This document shows, in pieces, positions 1-47,875 of a DNA stretch of 64,000 bases. A program made the translations under genes and the position numbers. The stretch covers positions 4,694,768 through 4,758,767 of the forward strand of contig PSQN01000017.1 in NCBI GenBank assembly GCA_002989075.1. The letters run 5' to 3'. The DNA is from Arthonia radiata (taxonomy: Eukaryota > Ascomycota > Arthoniomycetes > Arthoniales > Arthoniaceae). How positions within the stretch are numbered: the first letter of the stretch is position 1; the number at the start of each line of letters is the position of its first letter. The notes beneath the pieces are model-generated. The model was not told where the DNA came from and made no database searches. It saw nothing but the letters and a program-made list of their open reading frames with translations.

Positions 1-1086
1 TCGACTACCGGCTATATCTTTCTACTCAGAAACGGAGCTCTTAGCTGAAATTCGAAGCTATAAAAAACGGTCGCCTTAAGCTCTTGTGAGGCCGAATATA
101 TGGCCCTTAAAGAAGCTATAAAGGAACAGTCATTTATCCGATTAATTGCTACCGAACTGTCTAGGATTTTTAAAGAAAATTCGATTACTACCGTTTTAGC
201 GGGTACTTTTAAAAAGTCTGCGGATAAAAAGACTCGGCGGGCTCTAATGCACTAAGCAAGCATATATTTGCCCGGGCAAGCCGGTCAAATTAGACCGAAG
301 ACCCCGGTTTTGCCGGTAAAACTGTTACTTACCGACAGCAATTCGACAAAAGAACTTACAAAAAACTCTACCTTCTGAGCTAAATTTAAGCATATTAATA
401 TACAGTATCACTATGTTAGAGAAAACGTTTAGGCAGGCCAAACAGAGCTCAAATACGTTTCTACAAAGAAACAATTAGCAGACGGTTTAACAAAACCGAT
501 CGACTTGGCTAAAATACTAACGTTTAGAACTTAAATTAGCTTACAATTCGGCTAAAACAACTAGTCGATTAAGAGGGTATATTAGAAATTAACCAACTAG
601 CTAGTTAGCCGGAATCCTTAGGGGCCTAGAGTATCGAATAGGTCCTACCAGCTGTCTCGGTCTAGAATAGAACAAGCCTTTTACCTAAAGGATTGGGCCT
701 AGTAGCCCGAGTTTAGAACAAAAAAGAGCATTGTACGACCCGTTATAGACAGCTGGCCCGTAGTCTAAGACAACATAGAATAAACTTAGAGACTAATAGT
801 TTTAGATAGATAGAATTACTATTTTATACGGTAAGTTACAGGTTATCTGGTTTCTATTAAAAAAACAGATATCTAGTAAGTTCTATACGGGCCGCTGGAC
901 TTAGATATATAAGCTAGAATCTCTCTAGAGAATTCTAGCTAACAAGACAGACAATATAACAACAGCTTCTTCTTGCTACTAAGTATTGTACCTATACTAA
1001 GCTTAAGTATTGCACTAGTCTTAAGCTAGTCTCGTCTTTCTACTCTTTATAGTAGTATTCTTCTTCTTCCCTGCACCTTTTTAACA
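1..1086 (+). mobile_element. Copia retrotransposon C1, 3' end (cut by window edge)
   Basis: This is the 3' end of a Ty1/Copia element. Positions about 79-110 read SCEAEYMALKEAIKE, the end of the Copia RNase H domain, and about 465-500 read KKQLADGLTKPID, the usual Copia pol tail. Several TAA/TAG codons break the frame, as RIP would do. A polypurine tract (AAGAGGG, 571-577) precedes the 3' LTR. The element sits inside Ty3 element A0: the next bases (from 1087) match A0 internal sequence seen also at about 1785. The 5' half and left TSD are outside the window; the right TSD should be ATAGC (1087-1091). Confidence 0.85.
580..1086 (+). repeat. 3' LTR of Copia element C1
   Basis: 507-bp LTR of the Copia family, matching the solo LTRs at 26181-26688 and 42621-43126 and the reverse LTR at 39509-40016. 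It begins TATTAGAAATTAACC (TG mutated to TA) and ends CTTTTTAACA. Differences from the other copies are G:C to A:T transitions. Confidence 0.85.
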
Positions 1087-1211
1087 ATAGCCGCTATAGA
1101 TAAGATATTGAACGTTAACAATAAAATAGACAAAAACTTCTTAGATAAACGTTCTAAACTTACTTTATTTCTAATACGCTTGGCTATATATTTTAAGACT
1201 TATAAGAATTA
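1087..1211 (+). mobile_element. Ty3 chromovirus A0, segment 1 (start of internal region)
   Basis: This segment matches A1 internal sequence at about 1786-1911 (start of the gag region). It ends at 1211 with AATTA, which recurs at 15827-15831 after A1, so it is the left TSD of A1. The 5' LTR and about 100 bp of A0 lie left of Copia C1, outside the window. Confidence 0.8.
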
Positions 1212-1682
1212 TATTACGGACACCAGCTCTAGACGGCCTAGCGTATATTTAAGCATTAACTACTACCAGTTATCTTAGCTCTACTAGCATTATTTCCGAC
1301 TAAGTCTATAAACCCGCCGTAGGTATTATCGAACAAGACGGCTATAAGGGTCTATATTCTCTATAAACCTAATATAGATATTATTAGATTAATAGATATA
1401 AAGAAACTTTCTTATATACCTTAAACTATATAGCTAAACTAATAACTAACCTTAAAATAGACTTTAGTCTATTAACTTAACATTTAAATATAAGTTTCTT
1501 AACTATATTTAGATAATATACTTTACCTTCTATCTACTTTAGTTAAGCCCCTCTTACCTTCTATAATCTATTTCGCCTCTCCTATCTTTTAGTCTCTAGT
1601 ATATAAGATACCTACTACTAAGGTTAATAAGTATATAAGATAAGTAAGCCTTAGTTTATTTCTTCTAGCGACCAGCGTTATA
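1212..1682 (+). repeat. 5' LTR of A1
   Basis: 471 bp, starting TATTACGG and ending GCGTTATA (TG..CA ends mutated by RIP). The internal region follows with CTTTAATAGACTCGC, the expected primer-binding-site position; the same junction occurs beside the 5' LTRs of D and A2. Confidence 0.9.
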
Positions 1683-4232
1683 CTTTAATAGACTCGCTAT
1701 AAAAGTAGAGAAAGTAGATTAATTATATCTACTACTTCGACACTTAATAGCCGCAACGCTATAAATAGGCTAGCCAGCAAGATAGCCGCTACAGATAAGA
1801 TATCGGACGTTAATACTAAAATAGATAAGAGCTTCTTAGATAAACGTTCTAAACTTACTTTATTTTTAATACGCTTAGCTATATACTTTAAGACTTATAA
1901 GAATTAGTTTCTAAATAACAGTACTATAGTTTTATTTGCTGTATTCTATATAAATAGTAAGGTATATAAATAATTTAACTTCTATCTTAAAGACTACCTC
2001 TATAAGGCACCTAATAAACGACAGAAAGAGACTAATAAGCTCTTCTCTAGCTTTACTACGTTTTAGTAAAAGCTTCGATAAATATATAGAAATATAGATT
2101 CTAAACGTACTGCTATATATAAACTTAAGATACTCCGCTAGATAAGATTAGCTAGCCGATACGCCGCTAAGTTCCTATAATATGCTAATTAAATTAGATA
2201 GAATAAAGAACCTCTAGTTAACGCCTTTTATAAAGGCTTAAAGGACTATATTAAGGGAATTATCTATATTTATAGAGAGAAGTTTACTAAACTAAAAAAG
2301 TTTATAGAACGAGCCAAGAAAATTAACAACAGCAACTTTAAATAACAGTTCGAGAAGAAAGAAGCTAACTTAGATAAGTTTATTTAAACTTAAAGTAAGT
2401 ACAACTTACAATAGAACCGGAGTAATTTAATAGAATTAGACTTTATAAGGCTCTATAAGAAACTAAACAACCAAGAACGAAAACATAGAATAAAGAATAA
2501 GCTATACTTATATTACGGAAAACTAGAGCATTAAGTTAAAGAATGCCGTTCTAAAAAATAACAGTTTAATAGTACTAGCAGAAACGAACACAATCGATCT
2601 TAGAAATCCTATTTCCTACGACAATAGTTTAATATAACTATCTAGACACAGAAGAACAACGGTTGCAATAAGGCGATAGAATTGCTAGCAGCCTTCTTTG
2701 ACCGCTGGTATAAGAACTTAACTAAGAGTTGTCCTCTTTAAGCGTTAGAACTTCTATCTAAGATTAACCAGAACTAGTATAAGTACGTTACTAGATTAAT
2801 TAAGAAGTAGAAGAATATCTACTAAAGTACCTTCTATAACTAGAAAGATACTTACTAGATTACTTTTAATAAGAAGTATAATAAGCTAAACTTATTTAAT
2901 TTATATAAGAACTAGGATACAAATAGTAAGTTATAGAAAGAAATAAAGAAACGACAAATAAAATAGAAACAATAGAATCTATAGAACTAGAACAATATTA
3001 ACCGCACTATTTTAAGGCAGCAAATATAAGATACTATTACACCACATAAAACACTATTTTAGACTACGTACTACAATAATAATTATACAATTTATAAATC
3101 CGATAAATTAGAATTAGAATAGTAGCCGAGAAAACCAATATCTTTAAAACAAGGTTTGATACAAGAACTAGACCTTACTCGAGAACAATTTAGGTTACCT
3201 TACCTAGAAACCTAAGGGAAATTTAAGAAAGAATAGACCGTAGAAGCTAAGCAAGATAGCAGCTACGATACGTTATAAGCAAAATAACAACTTAAAGACA
3301 AAAATATAGATTCTAATAGTATAGAATCTTTACTTAAGAACGATACTAATTAGAAAGAATAAACTCTAATCTGTTAAAAAGGAATAATATAGAGACTTTG
3401 TTAGTTAGCCTTCTATAATAGAAAGTTAAGCGCTAATAGAGATATTAACGATATTCTAGAATATATTTATTTATATCTACAATAACTAGTAAACTACCTT
3501 ATTAGGGGTCTAGAATTATATAGTTAGTACTAATATCTTTAACTAACAATATATAATCTATAGATACGATAGGTTTTAACCAGCAATAGTTATATAATTA
3601 AGACAGGAATTGTAAACAACAAACTAAACGTTATAATAAAGACAGTACTAGAACATTCTATACAGAAATTCTTATAGCAAATTAATCGATAATAGGTTCT
3701 AATATCTAAAATACTTTAGAACGTACATAATTAACAGAAAAAAGACTAAGCCGACTACTTTAAGGGTAGTGGTACCGGTCTGTTTAACGGTTAGACCCTC
3801 TAAAGGCCTAGCTCTGTACAAGCTTAGCTTTTTACAGAACATATTTTTATACTTAAGCAACAATAAACTATAAAAACATTAAAATTATAATCGATTCAGA
3901 CGCAATAGACAACTTTATTTTAATACGCTACGTTAAAAAGTATTAAATATAAATATAAAAGAAGAAATTACTTTATACACTATTTAAATTTTAAAAGATA
4001 GAGAAAAGAGTTAACTATAAAAACTTTACTAATAAGTATAATAATTAAAGACTATTAAAAAGAAATTACTTATAATATTATAAATATTAACTAGTACTAC
4101 GCTGTACTAAGTATACTTTAGTTATAACAATATAACTTAGAAGTAGATTAAAAAACTAAGAAACTTCTCTTTACTAGGTATAAGCACTCTAAACAAGAGT
4201 TGTTTTATAAAATAGATACCTTATAAGCTATC
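1683..4232 (+). pseudogene. A1 gag and protease remnant
   Basis: Gag capsid-like reading frame from about 1970, then a CCHC zinc knuckle at about 2508-2560 (LYYGKLEH..KEC, with one Cys turned to Tyr), then a retropepsin motif at about 3885-3920 (IIDSDAIDNFI, where DSGA is expected). Most broken codons are TAG or TAA. The coding region stops at the insertion of D (TSD CTATC, 4228-4232) and resumes at 11528. RIP-inactivated. Confidence 0.85.
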
Positions 4233-4682
4233 TGTAACGCCGGTCGCTGGGAGAACCGAACTAAGGCTTACTTACCTTGTATGCTTGTCGACCTTAATAG
4301 TAGGTATCTTGTGTGCTAGAGACTAAAAGGTAGGAGAGGCGAGATAGATTATAGAAGGTAAGAGGGGCTTAACTAAGATAGATAGAAGATAAAGTATGTT
4401 ACCTAAATAGAGTTAAGGAACTTGTATTTAGATATTAAGTTAATAGACTGAAGTCTATCTTAGAGTCGGTCATTAGTCTGGTTATATAGTCTAAGGTATA
4501 TAGGTATATTTCTCTATATTCGACGGTTCCGATACTTTCTTTGTCGTATAGTTGGGATTCTATTGCGATATAGCGACGTTGCCGACGTCGCTATATCGAA
4601 GTCGTTAGATATACTATATAATACTTTAATAAGGCGGGCTGCGCTTAGCCCTGTACTAGCCTAATATAGTAAGATCGTAACA
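4233..4682 (-). repeat. 3' LTR of D
   Basis: 450 bp. Reading on the plus strand it runs from TGTAACGCCGG to GATCGTAACA, so both TG..CA ends are intact. It differs from the partner LTR at 11073-11522 by transitions only where I compared them. The part 4233 to about 4502 is shared with the family A LTR; the rest is not. Confidence 0.9.
4566..4598. repeat. Perfect 14-bp inverted repeat in the D LTR
   Basis: Arms 4566-4579 and 4585-4598 (CGATATAGCGACGT and its complement) flank a 5-base loop. The partner LTR has the same structure at 11407-11437, with C:G to T:A changes on both arms so that pairing is kept. Function unknown; a hairpin in the transcript or a regulatory site is possible. Confidence 0.7.
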
Positions 4683-4858
4683 CAAGGTCCTCTCTTTAAG
4701 GCTAGTCGTCCTCGACGGCCCTAGAGACATTAAAACCTTGTCGTTCCTCTGTAATAGATTTAGTTCTGTAAGTCGTTATATCTAAAGTTAAGAAAGTCCC
4801 TAGCGCTAATAAAGTGCTTAAGATCAATACTATTCTTACCGAAGTCTGTAGTTAAGAG

Positions 4859-5441
4859 ATGCCTCTGTATTTCCGTTGCTCTTATCTAAGTAAGAAGTGT
4901 GTCCTAAAGTCTGGGAAGGCATCGTATTTTGTGTATACCCGCGATAAGAAGTCGTATAACGTTCGTCCGTCGTTAGAGAATAGTTAGTTTCTATCTTACG
5001 TTTGTTGTCCTTGTTAATTTAACTTATTTTTTAGCTCGAAGTATTTATTCTTAGTACTTACGGGTGTCGGATGCCCTCTAGGGGCAACGCAAGCGTTTAT
5101 CGGAAGAAAAGAAAGTCGTTTGTACGGCGAAAAGGTAGCGCAAAGTTATTAAAGCGGCGGTTGTAGATTTAAAGAAGGAGCTCGAAAGGTTACGTATCTA
5201 GGCGTAGAACAAAATAAATTAGAATAATACATTATTTGAAGAAGAATGGCTGGCGGCTATGTTCAGTAGTAATATTGTAGAGGTACTAAGTAGCTTAAGT
5301 GTAAATTTTCGTAACAATTTGTTTCTAGAGTTAGGTAGTAGGCTACTAATATAGTAAGCTAGTTTGTTTATAGATAACCTAAGTATTAATAAGATACACT
5401 AGATAGTAAATTAGAGTATTAATACTGCTACGACTAATTAA
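4859..5441 (+). pseudogene. Antisense Zn2Cys6-like coiled-coil gene of element D (two exons, RIP-damaged)
   Basis: This gene lies opposite to gag-pol, between the pol 3' end and the 3' LTR. Exon 1 is 4859-4982 (124 nt, ATG start). A 52-nt intron at 4983-5034 has donor GTTAGT, a TTTAAC branch-like site and acceptor TTTTAG. Exon 2 is 5035-5441 (407 nt, TAA stop present in all A and D copies). The product would be 176 aa. Exon 1 keeps Cys7 and Cys14; Tyr at 4, 23, 26 and 33 come from TAT codons that fit RIP of TGT, giving C-x2-C-x6-C-x8-C-x2-C-x6-C, the spacing of a fungal zinc cluster. Exon 2 is rich in Lys, Glu, Arg and Leu (for example AVVDLKKELERL) and probably forms a coiled coil. In-frame TAG/TAA codons fit mutated Gln codons. 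Function unknown; a DNA-binding or regulatory role is inference. Confidence 0.75.
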
Positions 5442-8400
5442 TATTCTAGTCCCAATATCGTTAAATAGTATCTTTATAGTTAGTCAGGTTTTGTTCCAAT
5501 TTCTATTAATTTTTGTATTCGAAATATCCTTTCTACTTTATAAGATATTGTCGTTTACCTCGGTATTATCTATAAGCTCGAATTGTTTCGACCTTATACT
5601 TAGGTTCTTAATTATTAGAGAGAATTTCTAGGTTAGGTTGTTCTACTTCTTAAGAGTAGACTAGCTTTAATAGCGCTACATAGAATATAGGATGTATCCT
5701 TATTGTCTTTAGAAGTTTAAGTTTAAATGTTACGGGTCTTAATTGCTGTAAGATTTTAAACGGTTCTGTCTTAATATAGTCGAGTTTTTTGCTTGGTCTG
5801 ATAGTTTTTAAGTTTCTTATAAGCAAGTAAGCTCTTCCCCTCTCTTTTATACTTATATTTAGAGTAGTTCTTAATTTGTTATACTATTGTCTTGTTTGTT
5901 TGTTAATAAACTCGCTGTTAGACTTTAACTGCTAGTAAAGGGTCTTTATACTTATAGCTATTCGTATAGCTATCTCGTTTTTAGTAGTATTGTGTAGTTG
6001 TCTTCTCTAAAGAGGGTAATAGCTATATAAGGTATAGAACGGAGTTGTCTTAGTTATATTGTTTTTAGTATCGTTGTACGCTGCTTATGCTACTAGTAGT
6101 AACTATACCTAGTCGTTCTGCTAGTAGTTAATATATGCCCGAAGGTACTATTTAAGTGTTTAATTTGTTCGTTCTGTCTGTCTGTCTGTTTGTAGATAGA
6201 ATAATGTTAATATTTTTTGTTTTGTCTTTAGCTGTTATATTAGAGATGTTTAAAATCGTAAGACAAATTTCTAGTCTCTGTCTAAGACGATTCTTTGCGG
6301 TTAACCGTGGTTAGCTAAGATAATCTATAGGAAGGTATACGTTAACTATTCTAAGTTGCTAGCTTCCCTGTAAGGTACGAAGTACGCGTACTTTGTTAGT
6401 TTGTTGCATATAACTAGGATAGCGTTGTAAGCTATTCTTATGAGTAAATCCTTGGAGGCTGGTAACTTAGTAATAAAGTCTAGTAAGACTGTATATTATA
6501 GTCTTTTAGGTGTCTCGAGTAGTTATAGTTTACTGTATAGTAAATGCCTCGGGTACTTAGTTCTTACGCATATATTGTATTCTCGGATATAATCCTCGAC
6601 GTAGTATCGGATTCTTAGGATATAATAGGTCCTTATAATCTTTTCTATAGTATTATCGATGCCTTTATGTCCTTTAGTTAGGTTATCGTAGAAGTTACTA
6701 ATAATGTTTTAGATTAGATTCCTTAGGACGTAGATTTTGCCTTAGAATTCGTAGTAGCCTCTATTGTTCTTAGTTAATCCTAGGTATCGTTTCTCGTTTT
6801 CCTGGTAGGTCTTAGAGTCGTTTAGGATATCTAGGATTCGGCTGTCTAGTTTAATAACAAACTCTGTTGTTATAGCTAATTAATTGTATCTAATCTCGTT
6901 ATTGTGTTCTCGAAATATTGCGTGCTCGACGTATTTCTTGTTATTAAGGTAATCTAGTCGTCGGCTTAGAGCGTTAGCTCTATCGTTCTTAGAACCCTTC
7001 TTGTAGATAATAATAAAGTTGTATAGAGCTATAGTTTTTAACTATCTAACTTGTCTGCGGTTGAGTTTCTTTGTTGTCGTAAAATAAGTTAGGTTCTTAT
7101 AATCTGTATATACTATAATCGTATAGTTTGTTCCTTTTAAGTAAGCTCGCTATGTTTTGAATGCTGCTATAATGGTTAAAAGCTCTTTATCGTAAATATT
7201 ATAGTTCTGTTCTGTAAGTAATATCTTTCTTGAGTAGAAAGCTACTGGTCTAAGCTTTTCTTCTTTATTGTTTTAACTTATGTATGCTCCAATTATATAG
7301 TCTAACGCGTCTATTTTTATAATAATCGGTAGGTTAGGGTTAAATATTGCTAGTATAGGCTCGATCTTAAAAGCTTCCTTAAGCTCTTTAAATACTGATT
7401 GTTCTTTCTACGTCTAAAAGAATCCTATCGATTGCTTCGTCTATTGAGACAGCGGTGCTGTAATTCGGCTAAAGTTAAATATCTATCGCCTGTAGTAATT
7501 AGTAAAACTAAGAAACTATTGTAGTTGTTTTATATTCTTTAGTGTAGGCTAGGTTAGAACGGATTAAATTTTTGAATCTTCTATTTAAAGACTGTGCTCG
7601 GTAATTATAAATCCAAGAAATTCGACGGATTGTTGATAGAACTAGGTTTTCTTTATATTAATTTGTAAATCGGTACGCACTAATCTTTCTAATACCTTCT
7701 TAATATGTTTCTTATATTCTTTTAGTATACAGCTACATACTAGGATATCGTCTAGATAAGTAGTTATAAATATATCTAGGTAATTACTAAGTGTGTTGTT
7801 AATTAGTTTCTAAAATAATACTGGTGCGTTTATTAGTCTAAAGGGTATAACGCAATACTCAAAAAGTCTGTGTCTAGTACGGAAGGCTGTTTTCTATTCT
7901 TTGCCTTTCTTTATATAGATTAGGTTATAGGCTCCTTGTAAGTTAAACTTAGTAAACTATTGTACGTTATACAACCGATCTATTATTTTGTCGATACGTA
8001 GCAAAGGATATTAGTTTTTAATAGTTATCTTGTTTAGCTGTCTATAATCTACGTAGAGTCGTAGTTTGCTATTCTTCTTTGGTACGAAGAGTATCAGGTA
8101 TCCGGCTAGTAATATTAATTTCCGGATAAATTCTTTCTTAAGATTTTTGTTAAGATAGTCGCAGAGTGCTTAATTTTCTGCTTCTAATAGGAAGTATATT
8201 AGACCGAATATTAGCGTTTTGCCCTTCTATAAAGGTATTGTGTAATCCTACGGTTTATGTTCTAGAAGAGCTGAGTTCGGCTTAGCTTCTTTAAACAGGT
8301 ATCGGAATTAATTGTATTTCTTAAGTATCTTAGTAATTAACTAAGTACTTATCGTCGTATAGAATCGTTAACGTGCAGTTGTCTCTTATTTATACTTGCG

Positions 8401-10750
8401 TGTAGCTAGCTACAGACGAGATACTGCGTTAGACTTCTCTTATAGAATATCTGAATGTTGGAGTATAGTAGTACTAACCCGCGTAAGTTCTTTATCGCGC
8501 TCCTTATTCTTACTACTAAAAATAGCTTGTAAGATATTCGTTCTGCAGAACGACTCTTGTTTAGAGTGCTTGTACCTAGTAAAGAGGAGCTTCTTAGTTC
8601 TCTAATCTACTTTTAGATTATATTGTTGTAACTAGGGTATACCTAGTATAGCGTAGTACTAGTTAATATCTACAATATTATAAGTAATTTCTTCTTAATA
8701 GTCCTTAATTGTTATGCTTATTGGTAAAGTCTTGTAGTCGACTTTTTCCTCTACTCTTTGAAATTTAAACAGTACGTACGGTAATTTCTTCTTTTATATT
8801 TATATCTAGCACTTCTTAACGCAGCATATTGAGATAAAGTTGCTTATTGCGCTTAAATTAATTATAATTTTAATGTTTCTATAGTTTATCGTTACCCGAG
8901 TATATAGATATATTTTATAGGCAGTCGAGCTCGCGTAGAGCTAAACTCTTAGAGGGTCTAACCGTTGGACGGGCCGGTACTACTGCCCTTAAAGTAGTCG
9001 GTCTAGTCTTTTTCCTGTTAATTGTATACGTTCTAAAGTATTTTAGGTACCGGAACCTATTGTCGGTTAATTTGCTATAAGAATTCCTGTATAAGGTGTT
9101 CTAGTACTACTTTTATTATAACGTCTAGTTTATTGTTTACGATCTCTACTTTAATTATATAACTATTACTAATTAAGACTTGTTGTGTTTATAGGTTGTA
9201 TATTGTTAATTAAAGATATTAATACTAACTACGTAATTTTAAATCTCTAATAAGGTAGTTTACTAGTCGTTGTAGGCGTAAATAAATATATCTCGGAATA
9301 TTGTTAATATCTTTATTAGCGCTTAACTTTCTATTGTAGAAGGCTAACTAACAAAGTTTCTATATTATTCCTTCTCAACGAATTAGAGTTTGCTCTTTCT
9401 AATTAGTATTATTCTCGAGTAAGGATTTTGTACTATTAGAATCTATATTTTTGTCTTTAAGTCGTTGTCTTGTCTATAACGTATCGTAGCTACTATCTTG
9501 CTTAGCTTCTATAGTCTGTTCTTCCTTAAATTTCTCTTAGGTTTCTAGATAAGGTAACCTAGGTCGTTCTCGAGTAAGGCCTAGTTCTTGTATTAAACCT
9601 TGTTTTAGGGATATTAGTTTCTTTAGCTACTATTCTAATCCCAATTTATTAGATTTGTGGGTCGTATAATTATTATTATAGTATACAGTTTAGAATAGTG
9701 TTTCGTGTAGTATAGCGGTATCTCGTATCTACTGTCTCGGAATAGTGCGGTTAATGTTGTTTCAGTCCTATAAGTTTTGTTGTTCCTGTTTTATTTGTCG
9801 TTCCTTTGTTTCTTGCTATAACTCAATGTCTGTATCTTAGTTTTTGTATAAATTAAACAAATTCTACTCTTAGTGCTTCTCGTTGGACGAAACCTGATGA
9901 GTGTTTTTCTGGTTACAGAAGGTATTTCAATAGATATTCTTCTACTCCTTGGTTAGTTTAGTAACGTACTTATACTAGTTCTGGGTAGTCTTTTGTAGAA
10001 GACCTAATTCTTAGAGAAGGTAGCTCTCGGTCGGGTCCTTCTGTTAGCAGTTAGAGAAGGCTGCTAGTAGTTTTATTGCCTTATCGCGACTATTGTCCTC
10101 TTTTGTCTAAGTAGTTATATTAAACTATTGTCGTAGGAGACAGGGTTTCTAAGATCGATTGTTGTACTCGTTTCTATCGGTACTATTAAACTATTGTTTC
10201 TTAAAACGGTATTCTTTAACTTAATGCTCTGGCTTTCTGTAATACAAGCATAGCTTATTCTTTATTCTGTGTTCTCTTTCTTGGTTGTTTAGTTTCCTTC
10301 GAGGCTTTATAAAATCTAGCTCTATTGGATCGCCTCGGTCTTATCGTAAGTTTGCTCGATTCTTTGCTCTATAGAATCTATTAGTAGGGTTACCCTTCTT
10401 TTCTATCTATCTTTTAAAGTTACTGTCGTTAATCTCCTTTGCTCGTTGTATAAAGTTATTGAGATTATTAAACTTCTCTCTACGAATATAGATTATTTCC
10501 TTAATATAATCCTTAAGTCCTTCGTAAAAGGTCTCGATAAGGGGTTTCTTATCCTATCCTATTTAATTAGCATACTGTATAAATTTGGCGGCATACCTGC
10601 TTGCTAGTTCTATTTATTTAAGGTTCCTAAGCTTTCTAATAGCGACGCGTTTAGCGTCGGTCTATCTAAAGATTTTGCAAAGCTTCTTTTAAAAGAAAGT
10701 AAAGCTAGTAAAGAACTCGTCGGTATCCTCGCGCCTGCTCTTTATCGGAG
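5442..10750 (-). pseudogene. D gag-pol remnant
   Basis: Read on the minus strand from high to low coordinates: CCHC zinc knuckle at about 10200-10250 (CLYYRKPEH..KE), retropepsin at about 8830-8870, RT with YLDDILV at about 7735-7770, integrase with DRD.KFVLRF at about 6245-6290, and a chromodomain at about 5510-5590 (YLIK.KGY). This order, with integrase after RNase H and a terminal chromodomain, defines a Ty3 chromovirus. TAG/TAA codons interrupt every domain. Confidence 0.85.
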
Positions 10751-11072
10751 TAAATAAGAAATCGTTGAGGTAATATTTAATCTACTTGTAAGCATCTTTA
10801 TCTATACAAGAGGTAGCGAATAGAACTATAGTAGTATCGTTTAGAAACTAGTCTTTGTAAGTTCTAAAGTATACGACTAGGCGTATTAAGAATAAAGTAA
10901 CTTTAGAACGTTTATCTAAGAAGCTCTTTTCTATCTTAGTATTAACGTCCGATATCTTACTCGTACTAGTTATTCTGTTGGCCAACCTGTTTGCAGCGTC
11001 GCGGCTATTAGGTACCGAAGTAGTAAATATAATTAATCTACTTTCTCTACTTTTGTAGCGAGTCTATTAAAG

Positions 11073-11522
11073 TATAACGCTAGTCGCTAAGAGAACTAAA
11101 CTAAGGCTTACTTACCTTATATACTTATCGACCTTAGTAGTAGGTATCTTGTATGCTAGAGACTAAAAGATAGGAGAGGCGAGATAGATTATAGAAGGTA
11201 AGAGAGGCTTAATTAAGATAGATAGAAGATAAAGTACGTTACCTAAATAGAGTTAAGGAACTTATATTTAGATATTAAGTTAATAGACTAAAGTCTATTT
11301 TAGAGTCGGCTATTAGTTTAGCTATATAGTTTAAGGTATATAGGTATATTCCTCTATGTTTAATAGTCCCGATACTTTCTTTGTCGCGTAGTTGGGATCC
11401 TATTACAATATAGCGACGTTACTAACGTCGCTATATTAAAGTTATCGGGTATACTATATAATACTTTAATAAGGCGGGCTGCGCTTAGCTCTGTACTAGC
11501 CTAATATAGTAAGATCGTAACA
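11073..11522 (-). repeat. 5' LTR of D
   Basis: 450 bp, TATAACGC to GATCGTAACA on the plus strand. GCGAGTCTATTAAAG just below it is the primer-binding-site region on the minus strand. It contains the hairpin copy at 11407-11437. Confidence 0.9.
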
Positions 11523-11527
11523 CTATC

Positions 11528-14587: not shown

Positions 14588-15169
14588 TTAATTAGTTATA
14601 GCAGCACTAATACTCTAATTTACTATCTAGTGTATCTTATTAGTACTTAAATTACCCTTAAACAAGCTAGTTTACTACGTTATAGAACTACTATCTAACT
14701 TTAAGTAGGAATTACCCTAAAAGTTAATAAATAATCTGTTCGAATATTTAAATATATTGCTACTAGCTATTAACGCGGCAAACTTCTCTTATTCTAACAA
14801 TTTATTTTAAGCTAACTTTGCTGCTATCCGCGTACAAGTCTTTTTAACCTTCTTTTTTAACTTTCGGATCTTAAATCAATTACGCTGCACAGCCGCAATT
14901 AATACTGCTATCTATACCTTTAACGTACGTAATTAGCGCTTTATACGCTAAAGAATAGCCGACTAAAAGGAATATTAAGAATAAATTAAATGCACTACAA
15001 CTAAGTTAGTTTTAAGTATTATAGAAGGATAGTAAGTAGATATACTATCTACTATTAATATCTATAAATTATAACTCTTTTTGTTCCAAGTATATACTAA
15101 ATATATTATCTTTTTAAACTAAACTATATATCTTTTCTTAGTTAATATATATTTAAAATAAAAAGGTAT
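14588..15169 (-). pseudogene. Antisense Zn2Cys6-like gene of A1
   Basis: Exon 1 is 15169-15046 (124 nt; start codon now ATA). The 51-nt intron is 15045-14995 (donor GTATAT, branch CTAAC, acceptor TTGTAG). Exon 2 is 14994-14588 (407 nt, TAA stop). Exon lengths equal those in D, A0 and A2. The Cys positions now read Tyr (TAT). The coiled-coil part includes KIRKLKKKVKKTC. See the D copy for the domain description. Confidence 0.72.
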
Positions 15170-18264: not shown

Positions 18265-18716
18265 TGTAACGACTATATAACTAGATCTCCAAACCAGCCT
18301 TACAATAGATTTTCTAAATAGAAAAGACTAGTATTACTAGCTAGACTTAGTATTAAACCAGGTAGATTATATATAGAACGAACCCGCTAAACTAAAGCAA
18401 CCCGCTAGAGAGTTTAGCAGGGATATAGAATAAAGGCTACAGCTATAAACTATATAGCTACAATAGCAGACTATCTCTATAGACTAATATCGGTTAACTT
18501 ATTACTCTATCTCAAACTTAATTACTTATAACAGTAACGTGTCTCGTATCTTTTATGTTTAACAGTTTACTGTTGTATTAGACTATTGCCTTAATTCTTA
18601 AACTAAAGCCTTAATTAATTGTTTATACTATATATATTGTACTTGTCTTTTATTATCGTCTCTATCTTTTAAACCTATAACCTCTATGCTAGGAGATATA
18701 ATCTAGCAGCGTTATA
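18265..18716 (+). repeat. 5' LTR of B
   Basis: 452 bp, TGTAACGAC to GCAGCGTTATA. CTTTAATTGATCGC follows at the primer-site position; it starts with CTTTAA as in families A and D. Confidence 0.9.
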
Positions 18717-23945: not shown

Positions 23946-24073
23946 ATATAGAAACTAGAAATATAAAGTAAAAGAAATACTCGACGACCGCAAACAGAAA
24001 GAAACGTACTAGTACCTTGTTAGATAGAAGAAATACTCTAACAGTAAAAATTTATAGAAACTAGTTAAAAATC

Positions 24074-24585
24074 TTAAATGTTGCTAGTATCTTCTAAACT
24101 AGTATTAATAGAGTTAAGCTAACTTAATAGAGTCTCGTTAACAATAAACTTTATACCGCTTAGCATTAACTAGTTATATTCTAACTTAATTATTAACTTC
24201 TTCTATTTTAGCAACTTATCTTAAGTATTTAAATCGATACGCTCTTTATTTAAATCGGCTAACTCTTACTTAATTGTAAGCTTAGCTCGCTTAGTATTTA
24301 ACTCGGCTTATTAAGCTTCTACTCTCTTACAACGCGTAATACGCGCTTCTTTATTAGCCGAATCTAAACGTCTTTAAATCTTATTACTTTAAGAATTAAA
24401 TACCTTTACTATAAGATAAGTTAGTATGAGCTAAATACAGAATAACGAGTAAAATACGGACCATTAGCCTAGATAATTGCTACGTTATAGCGCTTCTCTT
24501 TCTTAATACAAGGAATACAAGTAATCTTTTGGTATACAAAATAACACCTCTTTAACTATCGAACACAGTTTAAATAAGAAGGTAT
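24074..24585 (-). pseudogene. Antisense Zn2Cys6-like gene of element B
   Basis: Exon 1 is 24585-24462 (124 nt, the same length as in A and D; start codon ATA). The 53-nt intron 24461-24409 has donor GTCCGT, branch CTAAC and acceptor TTATAG. Exon 2 starts at 24408; the first in-frame TAA (24076-24074) is also TAA in B', so it may be the true stop (152 aa), but it could be a mutated CAA. Cys7, Cys14, Cys23 and Cys26 are intact; positions 4 and 33 read Tyr. The spacing C-x2-C-x6-C-x8-C-x2-C-x6-C is identical to family A/D. The tail is charged (KEARITRCKRVEA, DLNKERIDLN), probably coiled coil. Confidence 0.75.
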
Positions 24586-24799
24586 ATTATTAAGAATAAC
24601 CTAAGGCTTGTTTAAGAACTAAAAGGATTTATACGAAGATTTAGAAAGTAGCTTCTAACAGCGAGATTTAGTAACAGTACTATAAAATTTTAATATAATA
24701 ACTTATAGAAAAGAAAATACTAAAGACAATAGATAGACTTATAAGTATTTATAGTGCAGTTAGTTAATTAAGAATAATTTAACCTTAAGAGAGGAATTG

Positions 24800-26688: not shown

Positions 26689-28976
26689 ATTATAAACAAT
26701 AGATATCTAAATTTAGCTAAATTATAGTATCGCTGTCTTAATAAATAAAATAATCGATAGAATTCTTTTAGACGTAAAAAGAATAATTAGTATTTAAAGA
26801 GCTTAAGAAAGCTTTTAAGATCGAATCTATACTAGCAATATTTAACTCTAATTTACTGATTATTATAAAAATAGACGCGTTAGACTATACGATTAGAGTA
26901 TATATAAATTAAAATAATAAGGAAAGAAAGCTTAGACTAGTAGCTTTCTACTCAAAAAAAATATTATCTATAGAACAGAACTACAATATTTATAATAAAG
27001 AGCTTTTAGCTATTATAGCAGTATTTAAAATATAGCGAGCTTACTTAAAAGAAGCAAACTATATAATTATAGTATATATAGACTATAAGAATTTAACTTA
27101 CTTTATAATAATAAAGAAACTTAACTACAGATAAGTTAGATAGTTAAAAACTATAGCTCCGTATAACTTTATTATTATTTATAAGAAGGGTTCTAAGAAC
27201 AATAAAGCCGACGCTCTAAGCTAAAGTTTAAATTACCTTAACAATAAGAAATATATCGAGCACGCAATATTCTAAGAATATAATAATAAGATTAGATACA
27301 ATTAATTAGCTATAATAATTAAGTTTGTTATTAAACTAGATAGCCGAATCTTATATATTCTAAACGACTCTAAGATCTACTAAGAAAACGAGAGACAATA
27401 TCTAAGACTAACTAAGAATAATAAGAGCTATTATAAATTCTAAGGTAAAATCTACGTTCTAAGAAATCTAATCTAATATATTATTAGTAATTTTTATAAT
27501 AACCTAACGAAAGAATATAAAGGTATTAACAACACTATTAAAAAGATTATAAAAACCTACTATATTCTAAAAATTTAACACTACGTCGAGAATTATATCT
27601 AAAAATACAATATATATATAAAAACTAAGTATCTAAAATATTTACTATATAGTAAACTACAACTACTAGAAATACCCGAAAGACTATAATATATAGTCTT
27701 ACTAGACTTTATTACTAAATTACTAATCTCTAAGGATTTACTTATAGAAATAGCTTACAATGCTATTCTAGTTATATACGATAAACTAACAAAGTACGCG
27801 TACTTTGTATCTTATAAAGAAGCTAATAATTTAGAATAATTAGTATATATATTTCTTTAAATTATTCTGGCTAACTATAGACAACTACAAAAAATTGTCT
27901 TAAACAGAGATTAAAAATTCGTCTTACGATTTTAAACATCTCTAATATAACAACTAGAAACAAAATAAAAGATATCTACTTTAGTTTATTTATAGACAAA
28001 CAGACAAATAAAATAGATAAACTAAACTCTAGAACAATACCTCTAAGCATATATTAACTACTAGTAGAACGACTAGGTATAGTTACTACTAGTTGCGTAA
28101 GCTACGTATAATAATACTAAAAACAATATAATAAAAATAACTCTGTTTTATGTTTTATATAGCTACTACCCTCTTTAAAAAAGATAACTATAGAATATAA
28201 TAAAGAATAAAACTGCTACACAAATAGCTATAAATATAAAAACTCTATACCAGTAGTTAAAGTCCGACAGCAAGTTTATTAACAAACGTATCAAAAAGTA
28301 GTACAATAAGTTAAAAACTATCTTAAATATAGATATAAAAGAAAGAAAAAGAGCTTACTTACTTATAAGAAACCTTAAAACTACTAAACTAAGTAAAAAC
28401 CTTAACTATACTAAGACAGAACTATTTAAAATCTTACAGCAATTAGAATCCGTAATATTTAACTTCGAGCTTCTAAGAACAATAAAAATATACTCTATAT
28501 TTTATATAGCGCTATTAAAACTAGCTTACTCTTAGAAAGTAGAACGATCTAACTTAGAAATCCTTTTAAACAACTAAGAATCTAAATATAAGGTAGAGAT
28601 AATTTAAACTTATAGGCAATACCGAGGTAAACAACAATATCTTATAAAATAGAAAGAATACTCTAAATATAAAAATTAGTAGAATCTAAAATAAAACCTA
28701 ACTAACTATAAAGACACTATTTAACGGTACTAAAACTAAAATATTAATTAGTTATAATAGTACTAACGTTCTAATTTACTATTTAATGCGCGTTACTAGT
28801 ATTTAGGTTACCTTTAAATAAACTAGCTTACTATATTATAGGTCTGCTATCTAACTTTAAGTAAAAATTACTTTAAAAGTTAATAAATAACCCGCTCGAG
28901 TATTTAAATATATCGCTACTAGCTATCAATACGGCTAACTTCTCTTACTTTAACAATTTATTTCGAGCTAGCTTTA
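26689..28976 (+). mobile_element. Ty3 chromovirus A0, segment 4 (RNase H, integrase, chromodomain remnant)
   Basis: It matches A1 from about 12537. RNase H is at about 26860-26910, the integrase NRD.KFVLRF motif at about 27900-27935, a chromodomain at about 28620-28690 (YRGKQQYLIK.KEYSKY). The 3' part overlaps exon 2 of the antisense gene. It ends at TSD CTTTA (28972-28976), where A2 inserted. Confidence 0.85.
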
Positions 28977-29447: not shown

Positions 29448-30024
29448 CAATCCCCCGTCTTTTAGTTAAATTGTCCTTAATTAACCTTTAACTCGTTAAA
29501 TACCTATAAGTTATATATTATCTCTTCTTCTATAACTAATCTGTAAGTTGCTATACTTTGTATAAAGTCTGTTACTATAAATTCTAATAAAAAGTATAGC
29601 TAATACCTACTAATTAAAGCTTACGGTATTAAAATACCTTCTTGTTTCTAATATATATCGACTAAAAAGAGGTATATAGTTTAGTTTAAAAAGACAACGT
29701 ATTTAGTATATATTCGAAATAAGAAGAGTTATAATTTATAAGTATTAATAGCAGATAATATACCTTATTGTTGTTTTTCTGTAGTATTTAAAACTAACTT
29801 AGTTATAGCGCGTTCGGTTTATTCTTAATATTTCTTTTAGTCGGCTGCTCTTTAACGTACAAAGCGCCAATTATATATATTAAAGGCTTAAATAGCAGCG
29901 TTAATTACGGCTATATAGCGTAACCAATCTAAGATCTAGAAGTTAAAAGAGAAGGTTAAGAAGATCTATACGTAGGTAGTAGCAAAGTTAGCTTAAAATA
30001 AATTATTGAAGCAAGAAAAGTTTG

Positions 30025-30858: not shown

Positions 30859-31072
30859 CAATCTCCCTCTTAAGATTAAATTGTTCTCGATTAACTAGCT
30901 GCGCTGTAAATACTTATAAGTCTGTCTATCGCTTTTAGTATTTTTTTTTCTGTAAGTTATTATACTAAAATCTCGTAGTACTGTTACTAAACCTCGCCGT
31001 TAGAAGCCGCTTTCTGAATCTTTATATAAATCCTTTTGGTTCTTAAACAAGCCTCAGGTTATTCTTAACAAT

Positions 31073-31584: not shown

Positions 31585-31711
31585 GATTCTTAACTAGTTT
31601 ATATAAATTTTCGCTGTTAGAGTATTTCTTCTATCTAACGAAGTACTAGTACGTTTCTCTCTATTTATAGTCGTTAAGTATTTCTTTTACTTTATATTTT
31701 AGTTTCTATAT

Positions 31712-39508: not shown

Positions 39509-40016
39509 TATTAAAAAAGATATAGGGAAGAAGAAGGATACTACTATAAAGAGTAGGAAGACGAGACTAGCTTGGGACTAGTACAATACTTAGGCTTAGT
39601 ACAGGTACAATACTTAGTAGTAAGAAGAAGCTGTTGTTATATTGTTTATCTTATTAGCTAAAATTCTCTAGAGGGATCTTAGCTTATATATCTAAGTTTA
39701 GCGGCTTGTATAGGACTTACTAGATATCTGTTCTTTTAATAGAGGCTAGATAATCCGTAACTTAATATATAAGACAGTAATTCTGTCTATCTAAAACTAT
39801 TAGTCTTTAAGTCTATTTTATATTGTCTTAGACTATAGGTTAGCTGTCTAAAACGGGTCGTACAATGCTCCTTTTTGTTCTAAACTCGGGCTACTAGGCC
39901 CGACCCTTTAGATAAAAGGCTTGTTCTATTCTAGACTAAGATAGCTAGTAGGACTTATTCGATACTCTAGGCCCCTAAGAGTTCCAACTAACCAGCTAGT
40001 TGGTTAATTTCTAATA
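39509..40016 (-). repeat. 5' LTR of C2
   Basis: 508-bp reverse Copia LTR, TATTAAAAAAG to TTTCTAATA on the plus strand; TSD GTTTG follows. Confidence 0.88.
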
Positions 40017-42620
40017 GTTTGCCGCGTCGATAGCTAATAGCAATATATTTAAATATTTAAGCAGATTATCTATTAACTTTTAGAGTAACTCTTATTTAAA
40101 GTTAGATAGTAGTTCTATAACGTAGTAAACTAGCTTGTTTAAGGGTAATTTAGATATTAATAAGGCGTACTAAATAGTAAATTAGAGTATTAGTGCTACT
40201 ACGACTAATTAATATTCTAGTTCTAATATTATTAAATAGTATCTTTATAGTTAATTAAGTTTTATTCCAGTTTCTATTAATTTTTATGTTTAGAGTATTC
40301 TTTCTATTTTATAAGATACTGTCGTTTACCTTAATATTTTCTATAAGCTCGGATCGTTTCGACCTTATACTCGGGTTCTTAGTTGTTAGAAAGGATTTCT
40401 AGGTTAAGTCGTTCTACTTCTCGGAAGTAGGCTAGTTTTAATAGCGCTACGTAGAATATAGGATATATTCTTACTATCTTTAAGAGTTTAAGTTTAAATA
40501 TTATAGGTTCTCATTGCTGTAGAATTTTAAACGGTCCTGTTTTAGTATAGTTAAGTTTCTTGCTTAGTTTAATAGTCTTTATATTTCTTATAAGCAAGTA
40601 AGCTCTTTCCCTCTCTTTTATGCTTGTATTTAGGGTAGTTCTTAATTTATTATATTATTTCCTCGTTTATTCGTTAATAAACTCGCTATCTAACTTTAAC
40701 TACTAGTATAGAGCTTTTATACTTATAGCTATTTGCGTAGCTAATTTATTTTCTGTAATACTCTATAGTTGTCTTTTTTAAAGAGGGTAATGGCTATATA
40801 AGATATAGAACGGAGTTATTTTAGTTATATTGTTCTTTATATTATTGTATGCAGCTTACACTACTAATAGTAATTATATTTAGTCGTTTTGCTAGTAGTT
40901 AATATATACTTAAAGATACTATTCTAGTATTTAATTTATTTGTTTTGTTTATCCGTCTGTTTATAAATAGAACGACGTAGATATCTTCTGTTTTATTTCT
41001 AGTTATTGTATTAAAGACATCTAAAATTGTAAGACAAATTTTCTATCTCTATCTAAGATAATTCTTTGTAGTTAACTATAGTTCGCTAGGATAATCTAAA
41101 GAAATATATATACTAACTATTTTAAATTACTAGCTTTCTTGTAAGATACAAAGTATACGTACTTTATTAGTTTGTTGTATATAACTAGAATAGCGTTGTA
41201 AGCTATTTCTATTAGTAAATCCTTAGAAGTTAGTAATTTAGTTATAAAGTCTAGTAAGACTATATACTATAGCCTTTTAAATATCTTTAGTAGCTGTAAT
41301 TTACTATATAGTAAATACCTTAGATACTTAGTTCTTATGTATATATCGTATTCTTAAATATAATTTTTAATATAGCGTTAGACTCTCGAAATATAGTAGA
41401 TTCTTATAATCTTTTCTATAGTATTATCGATACTCTTGTGTCTCTTCGTTAGATTATTATAAAAGTTACTAATAATATATTAAATTAGATTCCTTAGAAT
41501 ATAGATTTTGCCTTGAATTTATAATAGCCCTTATTGTTCTTTATTAGTTTTAAATGTTGTTTCTCGTTTTTCTAGTAGGTTTTAGAGTCATTAAGAATGT
41601 CTAGAATTTAGTTGTCTAGTTTAATAACAAACTTAGTTGTTATAGTTAATTAATTATATCTAATCTTATTATTATATTCTTAGAATATTGCGTACTCAAC
41701 GTGTTCCTTGTTATTAAGATAATTAGGACGTCGGCTTAGAGCGTCGGCTCTATTGTTCTTAGAACCCTTCTTATAAGTAATAATAAAGTTGTATAGAGCT
41801 ATAGTTTCTAACTATCTAACTTATCTGTAGTTAAGTTTCTTTATTATTATAAAGTAGATTAGATTCTTATAGTCTATATATACTATAATTATATAGTTTG
41901 CTTCTTTCAAGTAAGCTCGCTATATTTTAAATACTACTATAATAGCTAAAAGCTCTTTATTATAAATATTATAGTTCTATTCCGTAAGTAATATTTTTTT
42001 TAAATAGAAAGCTACTGGTTTAAGCTTTCTTTTCTTATTATTTTAACTTATATATACTCCAATTATATAGTCTAACGCGTCTATTTCTATAATAATTAGC
42101 AGATTAGGATTAAATATTACTAATACGGGCTTAATCTTAAAAGCTTTTTTAAGCTTTTTAAATACTAATTATTTTTTTTATATCTAAGAGAATTTTATCG
42201 ATTATTTTATTTATTAAGACAGTAGTACTATAATTCGGCTAAAGTTAGATATCTATTGCTTATAATAGTTAATAAAACTAAGAAACTACTGTAATTGTTT
42301 TATATTCTTTAGTATAGGTTAAGTTAGAATAAATTAGATCTTCGAATTTTTTACTTAAAGACCGTGCTCGGTAATTATAAATCTAAGAAATTCGATAGAT
42401 TGTTAATAAAACTAGGTTTTCTTAATATTAATTTATAAATTGGTACGCGCTAATCTTTTTAATACCTTCTTAATATATTCTTTATATTCTTCTAGTATAT
42501 AGCTATATACTAGAATATCGTTTAGATAAGCAGTTATAAATATATTTAGATAATTGCTAAGTATATTGTTAATTAGTTTCTAAAATAATACTAGTGCGTT
42601 TATTAGTTTAAAGAGTATAA

Positions 42621-46392: not shown

Positions 46393-46863
46393 TATAACGC
46401 CGGTCGCTAGAAGAACTAAACTAAGGCTTACTTATCTTATATACTTATCGACCTTAGTAGTAGTTGTCTTGTATACTAAAGACTAAAAGATAGGAGAGGC
46501 GAAATAGATTATAGAAAGTAAAAGGAACTTAACTAAAGTAGATAGAAGATAAAGTATGTTACTTAAATATAGTTAAAAAACTTATATTTAAATATTAAGT
46601 TAATAAACTAAAGTCTATTCTAAGGTTAGTTATTAGTTTAGCTATATAGTCTAAGGTATATAAAGAAGTTCCTCTATATCCGCTAACTCGATAATATTTA
46701 TATTAAGTTTATAGAGAATATAGGCCTTTATAGCCGTCTTGTTCGATAATGTCTATAACAGGTTTATAAGCTTAGTCGGAAATAATACTAGTAGAGCTAA
46801 GATAACTAGCAATAGTTAATACTTAAATGTACGCTAGGCCGTTTAGAGCTGGTACCCGTAATA
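46393..46863 (-). repeat. 5' LTR of A2
   Basis: 471 bp, TATAACGCCGG to CCCGTAATA on the plus strand. TSD CTTTG follows. GCGAGTCTATTAAAG before it is the primer-site region. Confidence 0.9.
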
Positions 46864-47875
46864 CTTTGCTACCGCTCGCGTACAAGTCTTCTTAATCTTC
46901 TTTTTTAACTTTCGAATCTTAGATTGGTTACGCTATATAGCTGCAACCAATACTGCTGTCTAAGCCTTTAACGTACGTAATTAGCGCTTTGTATACTAAA
47001 GAGCAGCCGACTAAAAGAAATATTGAGAATAAACTGAATGCGCTATAACTAAGTTAACTTTAAATACTACAGAAAAAATAATAATAAGGTATACTATTTA
47101 CTATTAATACCCGTAAATTATAACTCTTCTTATTCTAAGTATATACCGAATACGTTATCTTTTCTAACTAAACTATATACCTTTCTCTAGTCGACAAATA
47201 TTTAGAACAAGGAGGTATTTTAATACTATAGACTTTAATTAATAGATATTAACTATACTTTTTGTTAGGACCTATAGTAATAGACTTTATACAAGGTATA
47301 GCGACTTATAGAATAGTTACAAGAGAAGAGATAATACGTAACTTATAGGTATTTAACGAGTTAAGAGTTAATCGAGAATAATTTAACTAAAAGAGGGGTA
47401 ATTGTATTATAAATACTAACTCTAAACGGTTTAGCGTACGTCTAAGTATTAACTACCGCTAGTTATCTTAGCTCTATTAATATTATTTCTAACTAAGCTT
47501 ATAAACCCGCTGTAGACATTATCGGGTAAAACGGCTATAAAGATCTATATTCCTTATAAACCTAATATAAGTATTATTAAATTAACAGACATAGAGAAAC
47601 TTTTCTATGTATCTTAGACTATATAGCTAAACTAATAGCCAACCTTAGAATAAACTTTAGTCTGTTAATTTAATATCTAAATATAAGTTTCTTAACTATA
47701 TTTAAATAACGTACTTTACCTTCTATCTACTTTAGTTAAGCCCCTCTTACCCTTTATAATCTATTTCGCCTCTCCTATCTTTTAGTCTCGAGTATACAAG
47801 ATACCTAATACTAAGGTTGATAAGCATACAAGGTAAGTAAGCCTTAGTTTGGTTCTCCTAGCGACCGGCGTTATA
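46864..47875 (+). mobile_element. Ty3 chromovirus A0, segment 5 (3' end)
   Basis: A0 resumes after A2 (CTTTGCTACCGC matches A1 at about 14817) and runs to its own 3' LTR. It contains exon 1, the intron and part of exon 2 of the A0 antisense gene. Its right end at 47875 is the edge of the whole stack; CCCAA (47876-47880) should be the right TSD of A0. Confidence 0.85.
47405..47875 (+). repeat. 3' LTR of A0
   Basis: 471 bp, TATTATAAATAC to GACCGGCGTTATA, preceded by the polypurine tract AAAAGAGGGG. Confidence 0.9.

What the first reader, a model, noticed from the sequence alone, without database searches (positions are those of the whole stretch)
4859..5441. Antisense, intron-containing Zn2Cys6-like gene inside Ty3 chromoviruses (families A and D)
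Seen in sequence: in D, A0, A1 and A2 a two-exon frame runs opposite to gag-pol between the chromodomain and the 3' LTR. In all four copies exon 1 is 124 nt, exon 2 is 407 nt and the intron is 51-52 nt, although all copies are heavily RIPped and two of them are split by later insertions (the split pieces sum to exactly 407 nt). Exon 1 encodes six aligned Cys positions, C-x2-C-x6-C-x8-C-x2-C-x6-C, intact or read as Tyr through TGT to TAT changes. Exon 2 is charged and coiled-coil-like. Known: some plant Ty3 elements (such as Grande) carry an antisense gene. Inference: this is an accessory protein of the element, perhaps a DNA-binding regulator, and I know of no description of it in fungal chromoviruses.
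Basis: partly seen in the sequence, partly recalled or inferred. Interest (0 to 1): 0.88.

Follow-up and report, generated by a model that had tools for sequence, protein, structure and literature searches.

The report
Swapped antisense gene in fungal retrotransposons
A fungal jumping element carries, back to front near its end, a small spliced gene for a cysteine-rich protein that looks DNA-binding, and that gene plus the adjacent promoter stretch exists in at least three very different versions swapped between otherwise closely similar elements, which suggests a self-regulation module.

Summary
Family D (40 copies read) and family A (30) carry the antisense frame: exon 1 124 nt, intron 50-54, exon 2 407. 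All 70 are broken, as RIP would do. A RIP-proof test (purine/pyrimidine differences only) shows codon-position constraint in the antisense frame. Six columns with Zn2Cys6 spacing read Cys or Tyr in all 70 bar one cell, though no copy keeps all six Cys.

The claim that it is undescribed in fungi is wrong: Boty elements carry the antisense gene brtn (Zhao 2011, seen only as cited). Zn2Cys6 membership is not established (at best 11.8 bits against a cut-off of 21).

New here: D and A0 share R-U5 and pol (0.4-0.8% purine/pyrimidine difference), but U3, spacer and antisense gene differ at 21-39%, with sharp edges. A third version (T3, 17 copies read) has the same edges. Part of gag differs too (15%) and reassorts with the cassette. 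So antisense gene and U3 form a swapped, multi-allelic 3' cassette. Most likely function, inferred: an element-encoded nuclear DNA-binding regulator. An allele-specific 'immunity' cassette is the boldest reading left.

The parts
4235..11523 (-). Ty3 chromovirus copy D (gag-pol on minus), LTRs 4235-4683 and 11075-11523, 5-bp target duplication CTATC, inserted in element A0
   Evidence: self-BLAST, junctions; Pfam above cut-off on 4 of 6 unbroken pieces: RVT_1, RT_RNaseH, Integrase_H2C2, SH3_Tf2-1; Chromo found on an X-masked piece of a sister copy (L040)
4859..4982 (+). antisense gene exon 1 (D), 124 nt, six Cys/Tyr columns at codons 4, 7, 14, 23, 26, 33
4983..5034 (+). intron of antisense gene (D), GT...AG, branch-like TTAAC
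5035..5441 (+). antisense gene exon 2 (D), charged region; 3' end (about 5350-5441) lies in a stretch conserved with pol and probably overlaps the 3' end of pol; true stop may lie at codon 164 or 168
4504..5350 (.). exchanged cassette: U3 + PPT + spacer + most of the antisense gene; 21-39% purine/pyrimidine difference between D and A0, against 0.4-0.8% in R-U5 and pol
4520..4683 (-). U3 of the D 3' LTR (limits inferred), part of the cassette
   Evidence: (50 of 164 purine/pyrimidine differences to A0)
4566..4598 (.). 33-nt dyad in D-type U3, possible dimer binding site (lead only)
   Evidence: best dyad in the same position bin in 36 of 40 D copies; not matched in A or T3
14995..15169 (-). antisense gene of A0: exon 1 15169-15046, intron 15045-14995
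14588..14994 (-). antisense gene of A0: exon 2
46863..47218 (-). antisense gene of A1, exon 1 (47218-47095), intron (52 nt) and first 180 nt of exon 2; rest displaced by nested insertions
28744..28975 (-). antisense gene of A1, last 227 nt of exon 2 plus the 5-bp target duplication
29634..30024 (+). antisense gene of A2, exon 1, intron (51 nt) and first 216 nt of exon 2, split by a later insertion
40016..40212 (+). antisense gene of A2, last 191 nt of exon 2 after the target duplication

Best explanation
It is a genuine accessory gene of a fungal Ty3 chromovirus, coded antisense between the chromodomain and the 3' LTR, with one intron. Its nominal product is 176-183 aa: an N-terminal six-cysteine cluster with Zn2Cys6 spacing, a charged middle part and a conserved C-terminal part. 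It exists in at least three divergent alleles (D, A, T3), exchanged together with U3 as one 3' cassette in a nearly constant R-U5/pol backbone, most likely by template switching during reverse transcription. Most likely action (inferred): made from an antisense promoter in the spacer or 3' LTR, it enters the nucleus and binds element DNA through the cysteine cluster as a coiled-coil dimer, tuning transcription from, or integration of, its own kind of element. Shown: gene structure, codon constraint, Cys columns, mosaic structure, mixing with gag types. Inferred: the template-switch route, expression, zinc, dimer, DNA target, regulation.
For: Two families share exon lengths and splice sites; T3 has exon 1 124 (17 of 17), intron 51 (16 of 17), exon 2 428 (13 of 17). 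Purine/pyrimidine differences, which RIP cannot cause, rank codon position 2 < 1 < 3 in all pairs: D-A 29.8/40.9/48.4 ungapped, p=0.006; D-A, D-T3, A-T3 p=0.0003, 0.0008, 0.0001 on a MAFFT alignment of 12 copies each (not independent tests). The six columns are TGY/TAY in 419 of 420 D+A cells and 101 of 102 T3 cells, with Cys kept in at least 2 copies per column and family. Exchange, D vs A0: R-U5 1 of 266 and 2 of 266, pol 30 of 4203 (third positions of 5351-8900: 22 of 1177), against U3 50 of 164, spacer 54 of 175, exon 1 26 of 124, exon 2 to 5350 74 of 310. The same boundaries hold for T3. Gag type vs cassette: gagD with D 13, with A 1; gagA with A 4, D 3, T3 1; 58 of 80 gag hits unpaired.
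Against: No intact copy among the 40 D, 30 A and 17 T3 copies read; no copy keeps more than five of the six Cys; no RNA data. Pfam Zn_clus: best 11.8 bits against a cut-off of 21, and only half the domain; no hit at the gene among 62 places. Profile comparison with 15 Zn2Cys6 domains of the same genome aligns only the first triad, to the second half of the domain, and fails for A alone (score 9.3, shuffles up to 12.0). No homologue found in the protein collection or PDB (best E 0.095). The backbone is not constant throughout: part of gag differs at 67 of 450 sites, and in 12 x 12 copies pol 5879-6838 differs at 2-8% per 60-nt window. U3 and gene are adjacent, so their joint exchange needs no functional link; one T3 copy (L121) has a D-type LTR. 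Only D-type U3 has a dyad clearly above chance.
Confidence: 0.62

Rival explanations
1. Allele-specific immunity cassette: the antisense protein represses (or activates) only the U3 it travels with, so an element with a new cassette escapes control by resident elements, much as lambdoid phages swap repressor plus operators (phage comparison recalled).
For: DNA-binding-like protein gene and promoter exchange as one block in three types; a U3 dyad in D; self-encoded control with recombining variants is known for Ty1 (abstract of PMC7055915).
Against: Adjacency alone explains the linkage; L121 mixes D-type LTR with T3 gene; A-type U3 dyads are at the shuffled median and T3 at the shuffled 95% bound; no binding data.
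Confidence: 0.2
2. Integration or nuclear-import cofactor: the protein acts with integrase and chromodomain or with Gag, not on transcription.
For: It lies next to the pol 3' end and probably overlaps it; part of gag also varies, 67 of 450 sites; gag and cassette types are associated (gagD with D 13 of 14; gagA with A 4 of 8); the Grande antisense protein is nuclear (PMC7264820, sections 5 and 7 read).
Against: Mixed pairs (gagA with D 3, gagD with A 1) argue against obligatory Gag pairing.
Confidence: 0.2
3. Regulatory antisense RNA: the transcript, not the protein, matters (dsRNA against the sense RNA).
For: Antisense position beside pol 3' end and LTR; this option is discussed for plants in PMC7264820 (passages read).
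Against: Codon-position constraint, Cys columns and shared splice sites show a protein was under selection.
Confidence: 0.07
4. Chance frame in AT-rich, RIP-mutated DNA.
For: Every copy read has many stops.
Against: Three divergent types keep frame, splice sites and Cys columns; RIP-proof codon signal.
Confidence: 0.02

Closest known systems
brtn, antisense gene of Boty-like Ty3 elements (Botrytis cinerea, Sclerotinia; Zhao et al. 2011, seen only as cited)
   Same: Antisense gene between pol and 3' LTR of a fungal Ty3 element with a chromodomain (passage of PMC4227169 lists CHROMO; PMC7264820 section 5 places it between pol and 3' LTR)
   Different: Sequence, introns and Cys pattern of brtn not seen; exchange as a U3-linked cassette not mentioned in the passages seen
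Plant aORF-3R genes: Grande gene23, RIRE2, Retand ORF4 (PMC7264820 and PMC11963269, passages)
   Same: Antisense, between pol and 3' LTR; nuclear protein (Grande); supposed DNA-binding regulator
   Different: Plant elements, non-chromovirus in the case of Retand; TRP28 domain in Retand, not detected here
Zn2Cys6 binuclear cluster proteins (PF00172, Gal4 type)
   Same: C-x2-C-x6-C-x8-C-x2-C-x6-C near the N-terminus, charged stretch after it
   Different: Below Pfam cut-off; usual loop proline not seen (recalled feature); very small protein
HTLV-1 HBZ and other retroviral antisense genes (HBZ named in a passage of PMC11963269; HTLV antisense promoter in PMC7264820)
   Same: Antisense, nuclear; 3' LTR promoter and splicing (splicing recalled)
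   Different: bZIP protein (recalled); no homology claimed
Ty1 copy number control (PMC7055915, abstract read) and lambdoid immunity regions (recalled)
   Same: Self-encoded control; variants spread by recombination
   Different: Ty1 factor is a Gag fragment; phage region is repressor plus operators; function here unproven

Membership tests
brtn-type antisense gene of fungal Ty3 elements | antisense, between pol/chromodomain and 3' LTR | tested here: met
brtn-type antisense gene of fungal Ty3 elements | sequence similarity to BRTN | not testable with these tools
   BRTN sequence and Zhao 2011 not held
brtn-type antisense gene of fungal Ty3 elements | host element is Boty-like by pol phylogeny | not tested
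   no Boty pol available; Pfam shows chromovirus domains only
Zn2Cys6 (PF00172) | six Cys with C-x2-C-x6-C-x5..12-C-x2-C-x6..8-C (spacing rule recalled) | tested here: met
   by columns: TGY/TAY in D, A and T3 bar two single cells; no single copy keeps all six, at most five
Zn2Cys6 (PF00172) | Pfam score above cut-off (21 bits) | tested here: not met
   of 62 genome places over the cut-off none lies within 2 kb of the 97 listed D, A and T3 places. RIP changes of Cys to Tyr make this test harsh
Zn2Cys6 (PF00172) | profile similarity to Zn2Cys6 domains of the same genome | tested here: inconclusive
   pooled score 16.9 vs at most 11.0 in 40 column shuffles but only 16 columns; D 19.0 vs 14.2, T3 16.4 vs 9.5, A 9.3 vs 12.0
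Zn2Cys6 (PF00172) | zinc and DNA binding | not testable with these tools
   needs protein
Retand TRP28 (PF04195) | TRP28 domain | tested here: not met
   11 X-masked members (7 D, 4 A), Pfam at E<=1: not listed
Immunity-type cassette | putative regulator gene and adjacent promoter exchange together | tested here: met
   one exception L121. That the gene is a regulator of this promoter is not tested
Immunity-type cassette | allele-specific binding and repression | not testable with these tools
   bench work needed

The most novel reading that the evidence does not exclude
A retrotransposon 'immunity cassette': an antisense-encoded DNA-binding protein and the U3 promoter it controls form a co-inherited, multi-allelic module that is swapped between otherwise closely similar Ty3 elements by template switching, so that elements change regulatory type and escape control by resident copies, while gag variants reassort separately.
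Probability: 0.2. Interest if true: 0.85.

Novelty: new variant of a known kind. Interest (0 to 1): 0.6.

Why it matters
Antisense genes beside the 3' LTR recur in plant and fungal Ty3 elements and in retroviruses, but the two plant papers seen here leave the role of the retrotransposon ones open. Here one genome holds three divergent versions in a largely common backbone, with sharp exchange boundaries near the promoter and at the pol end. That gives a natural experiment on whether the protein is matched to its promoter, to Gag or to neither. The purine/pyrimidine method also allows coding and recombination tests on RIP-ruined DNA without reconstructing anything.

Tried and rejected
Protein-collection searches with one X-masked copy and an 11-copy profile found nothing; 34 and 6954 candidates shared words, so the collection may simply hold few fungi. 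PDB profile hits are weak, E 0.095 or worse, mostly helical proteins. Rfam on the D element and a tRNA scan of the window: nothing. Post hoc U3 motifs for A and T3 look specific, but a general dyad test puts A at the shuffled median and T3 at the shuffled 95% bound; kept as a lead for D only. Constant exon length within a family was rejected as evidence after the spacer control. first cut T3 exon 2 at 407 nt, which gave no AG acceptor; with a 51-nt intron 16 of 17 end in AG and exon 2 is 428 in 13 of 17.

Rows dropped: L027 (D), L045 and L053 (A) from the full-frame counts; 4 of 17 T3 from the 552-nt set; A copies 31-40 of the list were not fetched. The three-way alignment used 12 of 40 D, 12 of 30 A, 12 of 17 T3, mostly the copies with fewer stops or no indels. 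L121 with its D-type U3 was kept in it, which lowers the D-T3 difference in U3. Of the 40 pol-end hits, 20 were fetched; 18 were left because they fell at known D or A places and two (C2:2604220, C1:176900) were simply left out.

Gag pairing accepted gene-to-gag distances of 4800-6200; 13 of the 22 pairs lie at 5459-5465, the rest at 5222-5856 and are less sure, among them two of the three gagA-D pairs (5270, 5275) and the gagA-T3 pair (5856).

Literature searches: (searches listed nothing). No title or abstract start in the listings showed a swapped antisense/U3 cassette in fungi; most subscription papers are not held, so this is no proof of absence.

Full report
What is there. The window lies in a 33.5-Mb genome in 16 contigs. 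Its AT-rich part is a nest of retroelements, among them Ty3 chromoviruses, with a clear RIP signature: TpA/ApT is 1.72 in element D against 0.60 in the GC-rich part 50-64 kb. Element D (4235-11523, pol on minus) has LTRs 4235-4683 and 11075-11523 and sits inside element A0, flanked by CTATC. Of six unbroken pieces of D, four match Pfam families above cut-off (RVT_1, RT_RNaseH, Integrase_H2C2, SH3_Tf2-1), and an X-masked piece of a sister copy matches Chromo at 29.7 bits, cut-off 25.1.

Check of the finding. Genome searches gave 40 scored copies for D (278 first-look candidates) and 40 for A (323 candidates), of which I read 40 and 30. Exon 1 is 124 nt in 40 of 40 and 29 of 30; exon 2 is 407 nt in 39 of 40 and 29 of 30; introns are 50-54 and 50-52 nt. 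The split copies A1 and A2 also sum to 407 (180 + 227; 216 + 191). Every copy read is broken: 7-19 (D) and 11-27 (A) in-frame stops counting the last; the highest count in each family is a copy with a 1-nt frameshift. At most stop columns (11 of 14 internal in D, 14 of 19 in A) other copies carry a sense codon, but codon 57 in D, codons 69, 148 and 149 in A, and codons 164 and 168 in both are stops in every copy counted; 164 and 168 are stops in 13 of 13 countable T3 copies too. For 164 and 168 this leaves open that the true end of the protein is there.

Is it more than chance? RIP makes only transitions, so I compared purine/pyrimidine classes. Between D and A outside the pol overlap, differences at codon positions 1/2/3 are 40.9/29.8/48.4 of 139/138/138 sites (permutation p=0.006). 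On a MAFFT alignment of 12 copies each, D-A, D-T3 and A-T3 give 35.9/23.2/46.8, 30.3/19.4/41.3 and 32.4/25.3/50.4 (p 0.0003, 0.0008, 0.0001; shared history, so not independent). Position 3 exceeds position 1 each time, which favours the antisense strand over a sense frame with the same middle position. Length constancy within a family, by contrast, is uninformative: the non-coding spacer is 175 nt in 40 of 40 D copies.

The cysteines. The six columns are TGY or TAY in all 240 D cells and in 179 of 180 A cells, and in 101 of 102 T3 cells. Each column keeps Cys in at least two copies of each family, but no copy keeps more than five. A change from TAT to TGT is not a RIP change, so Cys is the likely older state. 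The spacing fits Zn2Cys6. Yet Pfam gives at best 11.8 bits against 21, over half the domain. Of 62 PF00172 places in the genome, none lies within 2 kb of the 97 D, A and T3 places. Against 15 of those Zn2Cys6 domains the pooled exon 1 profile scores 16.9, column shuffles at most 11.0 (40 shuffles), but only the first triad aligns, to the second half of the domain; A alone fails, 9.3 against 12.0. I call it Zn2Cys6-like, not a member. Codons 58-112 are rich in charge (K+R 28-32%, D+E 5-15%) and nearly free of proline; the coiled coil is inference.

The swap. Along D against A, purine/pyrimidine difference is 0-2% in the inner LTR (4259-4498) and 0-1% in pol 5399-5878, and jumps to 0.2-0.4 between about 4504 and 5340 (12 copies each). 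In that comparison pol 5879-6838 differs at 2-8% per 60-nt window, more than in D against A0 alone (0.7-2.7% per 150 nt). In counts, D vs A0: R-U5 1 of 266 and 2 of 266; pol 5351-9573 30 of 4203, third positions of 5351-8900 22 of 1177; U3 50 of 164 and 62 of 157; spacer 54 of 175; exon 1 26 of 124; intron 17 of 51; exon 2 to 5350 74 of 310. Third positions of the antisense gene differ at 33-35%, those of pol at 1.9%, so faster amino-acid change alone cannot explain it; the block has a separate history. Twenty further copies of the pol end gave 11 D, 8 A and one third type. That type, T3, has at least 17 near-full copies, the same exon-intron plan (exon 1 124 in 17 of 17, intron 51 in 16 of 17, exon 2 428 in 13 of 17) and the same two boundaries against both D and A. 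One T3 copy, L121, has a D-type LTR joined at the LTR edge.

Gag. A stretch of gag also differs between D and A0 (67 of 450 sites; the flanking stretches 16 of 747 and 11 of 301), so the two are not identical outside the cassette. Gag type is not locked to the cassette: D-type gag goes with D 13 times and A once; A-type gag with A 4, D 3, T3 1; 58 of 80 gag hits could not be paired. The gagD-A pair (distance 5465) and one gagA-D pair (5462) sit at the standard distance; the other mixed pairs do not and are less sure.

How it probably arose and works. In reverse transcription the first strand jumps from R at the 5' end to R at the 3' end of an RNA, then copies U3, the antisense gene and pol (established retroviral mechanism, recalled). 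A jump to a co-packaged RNA of another type, followed by a switch back near the pol end, would yield this mosaic in one cycle and put the new U3 in both LTRs. The boundary near 4504 lies beside a TATA-like stretch, close to where U3 should end (inference). For the protein, the closest known genes are brtn and the plant antisense genes, of which Grande's is nuclear (PMC7264820, sections 5 and 7 read). With a six-Cys cluster followed by a charged part, a nuclear DNA-binding regulator of the element is the best guess. An allele-specific immunity cassette is possible but unproven: adjacency alone makes U3 and gene travel together, and only the D-type U3 shows a dyad clearly above chance (15 of 16 pairs in the window's sequence; best dyad in the same position bin in 36 of 40).

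Novelty. The antisense gene as such is a known kind, also in fungi (brtn, 2011; the original paper is not held). New here, as far as the listings show, are the conserved six-Cys pattern with one intron and the exchange of antisense gene plus U3 as a multi-allelic cassette; the first of these may already be in the brtn paper, which I could not see.

Noticed in passing
10324-10773: A stretch of gag differs between D and A0 at 67 of 450 purine/pyrimidine sites while pol differs at 0.7%; gag types mix with the 3' cassette types.
   Followed up: partly
L121 (C9:1860018-1861283): Apparent natural recombinant: D-type LTR up to the LTR edge, T3 spacer and antisense gene beyond it.
   Followed up: partly
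4566-4598: 33-nt near-perfect dyad in the D-type U3, best dyad in the same position bin in 36 of 40 D copies; A at the shuffled median, T3 at the shuffled 95% bound.
   Followed up: partly
28976-46862: Nested insertions: A2 lies within the antisense exon 2 of A1 and is itself split between 30024 and 40016.
   Followed up: partly
579-1084, 26187-26690, 39509-40014, 42620-43124: A repeated LTR-like sequence of about 505 bp from another element family, apparently as a solo LTR at 42620-43124 inside A2.
   Followed up: no
18260-25252 and 30406-37391: Two 7-kb elements of another family in inverted orientation, 88.6% identical; no match to the D antisense protein there.
   Followed up: no
5035-5441, codons 164 and 168: These codons are stops in all 39 D, 28 A and 13 T3 copies countable, so the antisense protein may end before the nominal stop.
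   Followed up: partly
59001-61000: Strong AT skew (+0.32) in the GC-rich part of the window.
   Followed up: no
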